NCBI RefSeq assembly: GCF_000974805.1
Contig: NZ_BBQZ01000006.1
Coordinates: forward strand, 1-64,000
Direction of reading: 5' to 3'
DNA: 64,000 nt
DNA from: Demequina salsinemoris
Lineage (GTDB): Bacteria > Actinomycetota > Actinomycetes > Actinomycetales > Demequinaceae
Shown: piece after piece, positions 60,091 through 61,381 of the stretch
Numbering within the stretch: the stretch's first letter is position 1
How the letters are laid out: every line of letters begins with the position of its first letter
Program-made: the position numbers and the translations under genes
The notes under the pieces: model-generated
Seen by the model: only the letters and a program-made list of their open reading frames with translations
Databases searched by the model: none
What the model was told of the DNA's origin: nothing

Positions 60091-60336
60091 GTGGCACGAG
60101 CCAAGAAGAACGACCGCGAGACCTTCAAGGCGCCGCGGAACCTCGGCAAGAGCAGCTCCGAGAACCCGAAGTGGCTCGTCCCGGCGATCGTCACGCTGCT
60201 GGTCATCGGCCTGGCGTGGATCACCGTGCACTACATCACCCAGGGCGCGTACCCGTTCCCCATCTACAACTGGAACGTCCTGGTGGGCTTCAGCTTCTTC
60301 GCCGTCGCGATGGGGCTGCTCACGCGCTGGAAGTAG
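60091..60336 (+). CDS. crgA: Cell division protein CrgA
   Basis: An 81-residue protein with two membrane helices (WLVPAIVTLLVIGLAWITVHYI and NVLVGFSFFAVAMGLLTRWK) and a polar N-terminus. It coordinates FtsZ with peptidoglycan synthesis at the septum in actinobacteria. It begins at GTG 60091 with AGGAG 7 nt before. A strong terminator follows. Confidence 0.95.
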   Translation: MARAKKNDRETFKAPRNLGKSSSENPKWLVPAIVTLLVIGLAWITVHYITQGAYPFPIYNWNVLVGFSFFAVAMGLLTRWK

Positions 60337-60363: not shown

Positions 60364-60403
60364 GCCCCCGCACGCGTGACATATCCACAGCGTGCGGGGG
60401 TTT
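60364..60403 (+). terminator. crgA rho-independent terminator
   Basis: cccccgcacgc (60364-60374) and gcgtgcggggg (60389-60399) form a perfect 11-bp stem followed by TTTT. The 14-nt loop contains ATATCCACA, one base off a DnaA box. Confidence 0.9.
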
Positions 60404-60512
60404 TCTCACAAGCACGGAACTGTGGATAACACTGTGGGAATGTGAATAACATCCGTGTAGTTATCCCCATGACTCTCCACACCTTGGGATAACTACACCG
60501 GTGTTATTCACA
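60380..60512. other. Cluster of DnaA-box-like 9-mers
   Basis: Six sites resemble TTATCCACA: 60380 (+, one mismatch), 60421 (-, exact), 60441 (-, one), 60461 (+, one), 60484 (-, two), 60504 (+, one). They fill the convergent gap between crgA and the rhomboid gene, an AT-rich patch in a GC-rich window. Confidence 0.55.
60441..60512. repeat. 27-bp inverted repeat, 18-bp spacer
   Basis: 60441-60467 and 60486-60512 are reverse complements at 25 of 27 positions. A partial third copy of the inner half lies at 60342-60356. Just outside is a second element, ACACCGGTGT, at 60495-60504 (inside the right arm) and 60520-60529. Confidence 0.9.
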
Positions 60513-60598
60513 GGGAATTACACCGGTGTGAGTAAAGGTTCGCGGGCGCGCGGAGGCAGCGGGATCGGAATGAGACCCCTGCTACCGAGAGGTGCGGA

Positions 60599-61381
60599 TC
60601 AGCGGCGAGCGCCCTGCGGGCTCTTCACCCAGTGCAGCATCGCGAGCATCGTGGCCGCGCCGGCGACGGCGCCACCGAGGTGCGCCTGCCAGGACAGGCC
60701 AGGAACGATGAAGCCCAGCACGAGCCACAGACCACCCGTGGTCACCACCGACTGGTAGTTCAGCTTGAGCTTGTACAGGACGACGGCATACGCGGCGAAG
60801 AGCCCGAAGATCGCTCCCGAGGCGCCTCCGTGGACACCTGAGCTCGCAAGCAGCTCCACTGCGAGCGATCCGCCGAGCAGGGAGACGACGTAGAGGGCCG
60901 CGAAGCGCACGCGCCCCATGATCGGCTCGAGCTGCGTGCCGAACTGGAAGAGCACCAGCATGTTCATGCCGATGTGAAGCAGGCTGAAGTGGAGGAAGCC
61001 CGAGGTGATCCAGCGGTACCACTCCTCGCCGAGGCCACCGAGCTCACCATCGAGCGCGGGGATCAGTCCCCATTCGGCTGCCCACTGCTGAGTTCCGAGG
61101 ACGAGCGTGCCATACAGATAGGCCGCGACGTTGAGGCCGATGATCGTGTACGTGACGTACGGCCTGCCGAACGCGCTCGTGAAGCCGAGGCGGTTCACGA
61201 CGGAGCGGGACTGCTGCCGCGCCTGGCGCGCGCAGTCGACGCAGATGATGCCGACCGGTGCGGGGGTCTGGCACTCGGGGCAGGTGGGTCTTCCGCAGCG
61301 CTGGCAGGAGACGTAGGAGACGCGGTCGGGGTGGCGGGGGCACACGGGTTCCATGGCGGTCCCGCCACCCGACGCGGTCAT
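60599..61381 (-). CDS. Rhomboid-family intramembrane serine protease with zinc ribbon
   Basis: A 260-residue protein. The N-terminus is a cysteine/histidine-rich zinc-binding ribbon (CPRHPDRVSYVSCQRC, CPECQ, CVDCA). Six membrane helices follow with the catalytic dyad S188 (GGASGAIFG) and H234 (WQAHLGG). It may cleave membrane proteins within the bilayer; targets are unknown. The ATG at 61381 may be replaced by an internal ATG nine codons on (MEPVCPRH). Confidence 0.92.
   Translation of the reverse strand: MTASGGGTAMEPVCPRHPDRVSYVSCQRCGRPTCPECQTPAPVGIICVDCARQARQQSRSVVNRLGFTSAFGRPYVTYTIIGLNVAAYLYGTLVLGTQQWAAEWGLIPALDGELGGLGEEWYRWITSGFLHFSLLHIGMNMLVLFQFGTQLEPIMGRVRFAALYVVSLLGGSLAVELLASSGVHGGASGAIFGLFAAYAVVLYKLKLNYQSVVTTGGLWLVLGFIVPGLSWQAHLGGAVAGAATMLAMLHWVKSPQGARR

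What the first reader, a model, noticed from the sequence alone, without database searches (positions are those of the whole stretch)
60380..60529. 72-bp inverted repeat with DnaA-box-like sites beside crgA
Two 27-bp arms (60441-60467 and 60486-60512) match at 25 of 27 positions. Each arm carries two TTATCCACA-like 9-mers, an exact DnaA box lies 12 nt outside, and another one-mismatch box lies in the crgA terminator loop. The gene order crgA-rhomboid-ppiA is near oriC in actinobacteria, so this could be a secondary DnaA cluster that titrates or regulates initiation, or an operator for another dimeric protein. A second palindrome, ACACCGGTGT, appears twice with 25-bp spacing.
Basis: partly seen in the sequence, partly recalled or inferred. 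Interest (0 to 1): 0.72.

Follow-up and report, generated by a model that had tools for sequence, protein, structure and literature searches.

The report
Ancient DnaA-binding control element beside crgA
A short stretch of non-coding DNA next to the cell-division gene crgA, built from three sites for the replication starter protein DnaA plus a second palindromic site in fixed spacing, is conserved across much of the actinobacterial phylum and probably helps control when chromosomes are copied.

Summary
In detail: 27-bp arms (25/27), five TTATCCACA-like 9-mers (at most 1 mismatch) in 132 bp, ACACCGGTGT twice. The gap lies between convergent crgA and rhomboid genes, 33 kb from dnaN-dnaA.

It is no local oddity. 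All 24 Demequina crgA-rhomboid gaps read (the window's own included) carry it. A model of these hits 213 of 297 genomes of the order. A wider model hits 250 of 396 phylum genomes, its mirror image 9. In 48 of 57 genomes where a listed palindrome-reaching hit and crgA could both be placed, they lie within 1 kb.

Anatomy: two opposed outer DnaA boxes; a middle box 12 nt from the outer box of its own orientation and 11 nt from the opposed one (36 of 48, mirrored when flipped; the reverse never); then, abutting, ACACnnGTGT followed by nATTC. The arms do not covary, so it acts as DNA, not RNA.

By gene order it corresponds to the Rv0010c-Rv0011c site that DnaA binds in Mycobacterium tuberculosis (PMC7738170), reported there as without obvious correspondence elsewhere.

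Best reading: an ancient off-origin DnaA-regulatory element, DARS-core-like in layout, with a second, unidentified protein on the palindrome. DnaA binding is inferred here; the direction of control is open.

The parts
60091..60336 (+). crgA, cell-division regulator gene (left, convergent neighbour)
   Evidence: PF06781 CrgA 68.4 bits, cut-off 24.8
60365..60404 (+). crgA terminator-like hairpin plus TTTT; its loop holds a DnaA-like box
   Evidence: sequence: stem CCCCCGCACGC/GCGTGCGGGGG
60381..60389 (+). DnaA-like box ATATCCACA (1 mismatch), accessory
60421..60429 (-). exact DnaA box TTATCCACA, accessory, outside the core
60441..60512 (.). whole conserved element (72-bp imperfect inverted repeat)
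60441..60449 (-). flank box TTATTCACA
60450..60459 (.). left ACACnnGTGT-type palindrome, degenerate (ACATCCGTGT)
60461..60469 (+). core outer box 1, TTATCCCCA
60473..60481 (+). core middle box CTCTCCACA, 12 nt from box 1 (same orientation), 11 nt from box 3 (opposed)
60484..60492 (-). core outer box 3, TTATCCCAA, opposed
60495..60504 (.). right palindrome ACACCGGTGT, two bases after box 3, in fixed register; putative site of a second protein
60504..60512 (+). flank box TTATTCACA
60520..60529 (.). extra palindrome ACACCGGTGT, 25 nt from the previous one
60527..60535 (-). weak box TTACTCACA (2 mismatches)
60599..61381 (-). rhomboid protease gene (right, convergent neighbour)
   Evidence: PF01694 103.3 bits
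61391..61939 (-). ppiA-like cyclophilin gene
   Evidence: PF00160 148.9 bits

Best explanation
The repeat is a chromosomal DnaA-assembly element outside oriC, conserved in Actinomycetota and tied to the crgA neighbourhood. Its core is three DnaA boxes: two opposed outer boxes and a middle box 12 nt from the outer box of its own orientation and 11 nt from the other. Two bases after one outer box comes the palindrome ACACnnGTGT, followed on its outer side by nATTC; in Demequina a palindrome stands on both sides, which gives the 72-bp inverted repeat. Shown here: presence, geometry, conservation, location, absence of arm covariation. Shown by others for the mycobacterial site that corresponds by gene order: DnaA binds it, and changes in it lengthen cells as dnaA changes do. 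Inferred: DnaA assembles on the three boxes as a small oligomer, a second dimeric protein on the palindrome (or loosely bound DnaA) modulates that complex, and the complex changes the amount or nucleotide state of active DnaA, and so the coordination of replication with division. On direction I lean to a DARS-like (activating) role over titration or datA-like inactivation, roughly 45:35, the rest for other roles.
For: 24 of 24 Demequina crgA-rhomboid gaps read carry it, gap length 61-704 nt. R1 hits 213 of 297 genomes of the order, 190 of them outside the genus. R2 hits 250 of 396 phylum genomes, mirror-image R3 only 9 of 396, best E 0.0038. In 48 of 57 genomes with a listed palindrome-reaching hit and a listed crgA a hit is within 1 kb of crgA. 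Geometry rule met in 36 of 48 elements, mirror violation in 0; shuffled middles give mean 3.9, maximum 10. In Demequina the neighbours converge, so neither needs a promoter there. Arms do not covary: 83.7% paired against 84.4% in shuffles; no Rfam family reaches its gathering score. Copies of the box-plus-palindrome module lie beside dnaE and dnaA in some other lineages. Literature: DnaA bound the Rv0010c-Rv0011c gap by IDAP-seq and EMSA, ChIP-seq in M. smegmatis found homologues of the same regions, and site variants lengthened cells (PMC7738170). E. coli DARS1 and DARS2, read here, have three boxes of the same topology with 12 nt between the same-orientation pair.
Against: No binding data in Demequina. 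Demequina core boxes are often TTATCCCCA, one off the canonical form. The opposed pair is 11 nt apart, not 14 as in E. coli DARS. The mycobacterial authors report unchanged initiation rate, which fits neither simple activation nor simple titration. 84 of 297 order genomes and 146 of 396 phylum genomes gave no hit at the thresholds used. Of the first six loci outside the genus, one is strong (L032), three weak (L031, L033, L034: E 0.0055-0.0099) and two have no match. Of 119 exact-pattern stretches, 18 showed none of crgA, rhomboid, dnaE or dnaA. In mycobacteria the site lies upstream of Rv0010c, so a promoter role there is not excluded, although Rv0010c and Rv0011c expression was unchanged in dnaA mutants.
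Confidence: 0.78

Rival explanations
1. Pure DnaA titration (a datA-like or Streptomyces D78-like sink; partly nested in the best explanation): boxes near oriC are duplicated early and soak up DnaA; exact geometry matters only for affinity.
For: 33 kb from dnaN-dnaA, so replicated early; accessory boxes around the core; box clusters repress untimely initiation in B. subtilis and S. coelicolor (PMC5742627 passage).
Against: A sink does not need the mirrored 12/11 spacing, nor a palindrome in fixed register, nor one place kept beside crgA in most genomes where both were placed.
Confidence: 0.3
2. The palindrome is the operator of an unrelated transcription factor and the DnaA-like boxes are secondary.
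For: A palindrome of the same type lies upstream of whiB2 in 25 of 25 Demequina loci, with no DnaA box apparent by eye; 19 of 24 class-level whiB2 upstream regions have at most 2 mismatches to TNACACNNGTGTNATT against 0 of 96 background windows. The base after GTGT is free, unlike a DnaA box.
Against: Three DnaA boxes are conserved with it, and the mycobacterial site binds DnaA itself. At whiB2 the right half overlaps a promoter-like -10 and the left half decays outside the order, so that site may be partly promoter.
Confidence: 0.2
3. The gap is the true or a second replication origin (oriC moved to crgA-rhomboid).
For: It has more canonical boxes than the dnaN-dnaA gap: 5 against 0 at no more than 1 mismatch.
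Against: The dnaN-dnaA gap holds its own cluster of TCACAG-type boxes, 6 of 29 in the 193-kb contig; in M. tuberculosis oriC and the Rv0010c-Rv0011c site are separate DnaA-bound regions. GC skew over the contig is inconclusive.
Confidence: 0.04
4. An RNA hairpin or bidirectional terminator transcribed from crgA.
For: 27-bp inverted repeat just after crgA.
Against: A separate terminator-like hairpin precedes it; arms do not covary; the spacing rule concerns 9-mers on either strand; no Rfam family reaches its gathering score.
Confidence: 0.03

Closest known systems
DnaA interaction site in the Rv0010c-Rv0011c gap of Mycobacterium tuberculosis (PMC7738170)
   Same: Beside the crgA orthologue (that Rv0011c is crgA is recalled); DnaA boxes with a small palindrome that is a hot spot of convergent changes, including insertions at a GAATC, the letters of the outer part of the palindrome here (nATTC, n = G) read on the other strand; DnaA binding shown there.
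   Different: Described for mycobacteria only and as without obvious correspondence in other species; read there as a palindrome of two DnaA-box-like sequences, whereas the comparison here separates a three-box core from an ACACnnGTGT palindrome. The M. tuberculosis sequence itself was not fetched; the identification rests on gene order and motif.
E. coli DARS1/DARS2 core (DnaA-reactivating sequences)
   Same: Intergenic; three DnaA boxes with fixed spacing, one opposed to two; 12 nt between the same-orientation pair; auxiliary protein sites beside the core (IHF, Fis at DARS2).
   Different: Opposed pair 14 nt apart in E. coli, 11 here; no ADP-release data here; near oriC; the neighbouring site is a palindrome, not IHF/Fis.
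E. coli datA
   Same: DnaA-box cluster in non-coding DNA with an auxiliary site.
   Different: Minimal datA is 262 bp with an IHF site between boxes (PMC5742627 passages); core plus palindrome here is about 52 nt.
Streptomyces coelicolor DnaA-box clusters H69, H24, D78 (Smulczyk-Krawczyszyn 2006; content recalled, paper not held)
   Same: Off-origin clusters near oriC in an actinobacterium; H69 may lie near crgA (recalled, untested).
   Different: No fixed architecture or palindrome is recalled from that work.

Membership tests
Orthologue of the mycobacterial Rv0010c-Rv0011c DnaA site | position beside crgA, on the side of ppiA | tested here: met
   crgA-element-rhomboid-ppiA in the window; crgA-element-bPH_6 gene in two loci of family f22, L114 and L126; f22 is unnamed, taken as mycobacterial by inference
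Orthologue of the mycobacterial Rv0010c-Rv0011c DnaA site | DnaA-box cluster plus small palindrome | tested here: met
   the M. tuberculosis sequence itself was not aligned
Orthologue of the mycobacterial Rv0010c-Rv0011c DnaA site | binds DnaA | not testable with these tools
   shown for mycobacteria in PMC7738170
DARS (DnaA-reactivating sequence) | core of three DnaA boxes, one opposed to the other two | tested here: met
   36 of 48 elements in strict geometry; DARS topology from PMC5742627 and E. coli K-12 sequence
DARS (DnaA-reactivating sequence) | E. coli spacing 14 and 12 nt | tested here: not met
   11 and 12 nt here
DARS (DnaA-reactivating sequence) | stimulates ADP release from DnaA | not testable with these tools
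   biochemistry needed
datA | DnaA-box cluster with IHF site, promotes hydrolysis of DnaA-bound ATP | not testable with these tools
   box cluster present; IHF and hydrolysis not tested
oriC | box array at the dnaA-dnaN junction | tested here: not met
   33 kb away; the dnaN-dnaA gap has its own array
RNA hairpin / terminator | covarying stem | tested here: not met
   Demequina rows only

The most novel reading that the evidence does not exclude
Actinomycetota share an ancient nucleotide-switch element for DnaA, an independently spaced counterpart of DARS beside crgA, in which a widespread but still unidentified cell-cycle regulator binding ACACnnGTGT-nATTC (also at the whiB2 promoter, and with DnaA boxes at dnaE or dnaA in some lineages) joins DnaA to couple replication initiation to septation.
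Probability: 0.3. Interest if true: 0.9.

Novelty: new variant of a known kind. Interest (0 to 1): 0.76.

Why it matters
How actinobacteria regulate DnaA outside oriC is poorly known. A small element with a strict box geometry, kept in one gene neighbourhood in many families, would turn a puzzling mycobacterial DnaA site into a general one that can be dissected in harmless laboratory species, and it predicts a second, unidentified protein on the palindrome.

Tried and rejected
RNA hairpin: no covariation, no Rfam family at its gathering score (three weaker matches, E 0.56-0.84). Relocated oriC: GC skew inconclusive, the dnaN-dnaA gap has its own TCACAG boxes. NrdR, BldD, WhiA, SlmA, Rex or parS site: compared from memory only; spacing or half-sites differ. 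HigA2 (PMC11205783, passages) binds a site in the Rv0010c 5' UTR in vitro at 8 uM; not pursued. First look for DARS1 in the wrong gap (uvrB-ybhK), then bioD-uvrB. A covariance structure was not given to any model; all three are sequence-only.

Rows dropped: of 26 outside-genus loci, L074, L084 and L094 did not fit the anchor expression and are absent from A4, R2 and the 48 elements; so are L029, L030, L031, L033 and L034. That anchor asks for ACA and TGT in the palindrome, and the boxes 1 and 3 were found by expressions too, so their conservation is partly selected; the place and orientation of the middle box were not selected. Two of the 48 linked genomes (G000, G044) also gave rows to R2. 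The named loci overlap the unnamed ones (for example L112 and L154, L113 and L136 have equal contig lengths).

Full report
Observation. None of 100 dinucleotide shuffles of the window reaches five such boxes. Genome-wide there are 120 sites with at most one mismatch to TTATCCACA, against 50 for the reversed pattern, and three exact ones; five of the 120 sit in 132 bp here. The gap is 262 nt between crgA (PF06781) and a rhomboid gene (PF01694), which converge. dnaA is at 93594-95003 of the same contig, so the element is about 33 kb from the dnaN-dnaA gap.

Who it is. 

Conservation in the genus. Of 39 genomes (the window's own and 38 relatives) 36 had a rhomboid match; loci of the best 30 were returned, 24 of them from the genus, the window's own included; one of the 25 genus genomes (G019) had no match. 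All 24 gaps are convergent and all carry the element; gap length runs from 61 to 704 nt. No alignment of the rest of the gaps was computed; close pairs such as L005/L006 share more than the element by eye. Alignment A2 has 27 invariant columns in 85. L022 has a 3-nt insertion in one arm; in L016 and L017 the rhomboid stop codon falls inside the right arm.

Conservation beyond. Model R1 from these 24 hits 213 of 297 genomes of the order at E 0.01 or better, 23 in the genus and 190 outside; most rows show two matches, which where listed are the two strands of one place, and some rows show 3-6. Of the first six loci outside the genus (L029-L034) R1 finds L032 clearly, L031, L033 and L034 weakly, L029 and L030 not. 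For 26 hit loci of other genera (L070-L095), tblastn with the window proteins finds crgA and/or rhomboid in the stretch in 24; the exceptions are L085 and L090. In an alignment of 31 elements (7 Demequina, 24 others, chosen by an anchor expression) the consensus is AGTTATCCACAGnnGTGTCCACAnCTGGGGATAACTACACCGGTGTnATTC. Model R2 from it hits 250 of 396 phylum genomes at E 0.05 or better; the same model read backwards (R3) hits 9 of 396, best E 0.0038. R2 must be read with care: many weaker hits cover only the box part and may be ordinary DnaA-box arrays. For 57 of these genomes a crgA place is listed; in 48 of the 57 a hit lies within 1 kb of it, in 44 within 2-139 nt. Of the 42 box-only hits, 9 are in genomes with a listed crgA and 5 of those are near it. 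PF06781 itself was found in 160 of 396 genomes.

Named genomes. A crgA profile made here finds crgA within 500 bp in 74, farther off in the stretch in 12, and not at all in 33. Of those 33, 10 have a rhomboid match in the stretch, 4 dnaE, 1 dnaA, and 18 none of these (my tally); some of the 18 may be chance.

Anatomy. In 48 elements (24 Demequina, 24 of other genera) the outer boxes are opposed. The middle box is 12 nt from the outer box of its own orientation and 11 nt from the opposed one in 36 of 48 (17 with the middle box forward, 19 reversed with mirrored distances); the mirror-wrong combination occurs 0 times; the other 12 are 12/12 (7), 10/13 (2), 13/10 (1) and 11/11 (2). Shuffling the middle bases gives a mean of 3.9 and a maximum of 10 of 48 in 500 trials. 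The rule holds in 19 of 24 Demequina and 17 of 24 others. After box 3 come two bases (mostly CT), then ACACnnGTGT, then nATTC. ACA and TGT are kept in 47 or 48 of 48, but the choice of rows asked for them in part; the base after GTGT is free (C 19, A 11, G 10, T 8). A free base there argues against reading the half-site as a plain DnaA box. The two Demequina arms pair no better than shuffled partners (83.7% against 84.4%; covariation score 0.056 against 0.065), so selection acts on each arm as DNA.

Link to experiment. Hicks et al. 2020 (PMC7738170; abstract, sections 7, 9 and 12 and passages read) mapped DnaA of M. tuberculosis by IDAP-seq to five regions, one being Rv0010c-Rv0011c, confirmed it by EMSA, and found homologous regions by ChIP-seq in M. 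smegmatis. A small palindrome there is a hot spot of convergent changes in clinical strains; reconstructed variants lengthened cells as dnaA variants did; initiation rate was unchanged, and neither Rv0010c nor Rv0011c expression changed in dnaA mutants. [quoted passage not shown] Two loci of family f22 here show crgA - element - bPH_6 gene, the layout expected if Rv0011c is crgA, Rv0010c the PH-domain gene and Rv0009 ppiA (recalled); that f22 is mycobacterial is inferred, and the M. tuberculosis sequence was not fetched. The listings of my nine paper searches (open-licence papers only) showed no report of this wider conservation; most listed papers were not opened.

Comparison with DARS. The review PMC5742627 (passages) gives DARS cores as three boxes with identical spacing, box I opposed to II and III. 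In the E. coli K-12 gaps (places recalled; the three boxes picked by me because both gaps show the same spacing) start distances are 14 and 12 nt. The actinobacterial core has the same topology and the same 12 nt, but 11 instead of 14. This is a works-like lead, not membership.

Mechanism. I think that DnaA forms a small fixed oligomer on the three boxes and that the palindrome recruits a second dimer that stabilises or times it. The longer cells of mycobacterial site variants, like those of dnaA variants, which the authors compare with weak dnaA alleles elsewhere, favour loss of an activating site; unchanged initiation rate and nearness to oriC keep titration open. These steps are inference.

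The palindrome elsewhere. In the window's genome TNACACNNGTGTNATT occurs without mismatch only in this gap and upstream of whiB2. ACAnnnnTGT lies 58-76 nt upstream of the WhiB2 match in 25 of 25 Demequina loci and upstream in 4 of 5 other loci of the order, after a TTGAC. In 24 further class-level loci (4 of 28 skipped as too short) 19 have at most 2 mismatches against 0 of 96 background windows, but the left half decays while GTGTAAT, which could be a -10, stays. In other lineages the module lies beside a probable dnaE (L106, L112, L113, L123; PHP domain confirmed for L106) and dnaA (L124; DnaA_N confirmed).

Verdict. The feature is real and reaches far beyond this window. Its role as DnaA-binding regulatory DNA is well supported by conservation and by the mycobacterial work; the direction of regulation and the second protein are open.

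Noticed in passing
G000:C20:516442-516459 (L247, L276): The whiB2 upstream region carries a palindrome of the same type (TGACACGGGTGTAATT) overlapping a promoter-like -10 after TTGAC; found upstream of whiB2 in 25 of 25 Demequina loci.
   Followed up: partly
G000:C15:93106-93593 (dnaN-dnaA gap): The presumed oriC has no 9-mer within one mismatch of TTATCCACA but six TCACAG motifs of 29 in the whole 193-kb contig, so origin finders based on canonical boxes could point to the crgA gap instead.
   Followed up: partly
   Followed up: partly
L124, L169: Copies of the module or its exact pattern between dnaA and an rnpA-like frame.
   Followed up: partly
L120 (G518:C1:46887-46940): A complete genome in which the element stays beside rhomboid/ppiA although the best crgA match is 3.45 Mb away; a second, weaker crgA match was counted but its place not listed.
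   Followed up: no
L009, L015, L091, L095: Tandem repetition of the palindrome-box module with a period of 45-48 bp.
   Followed up: no
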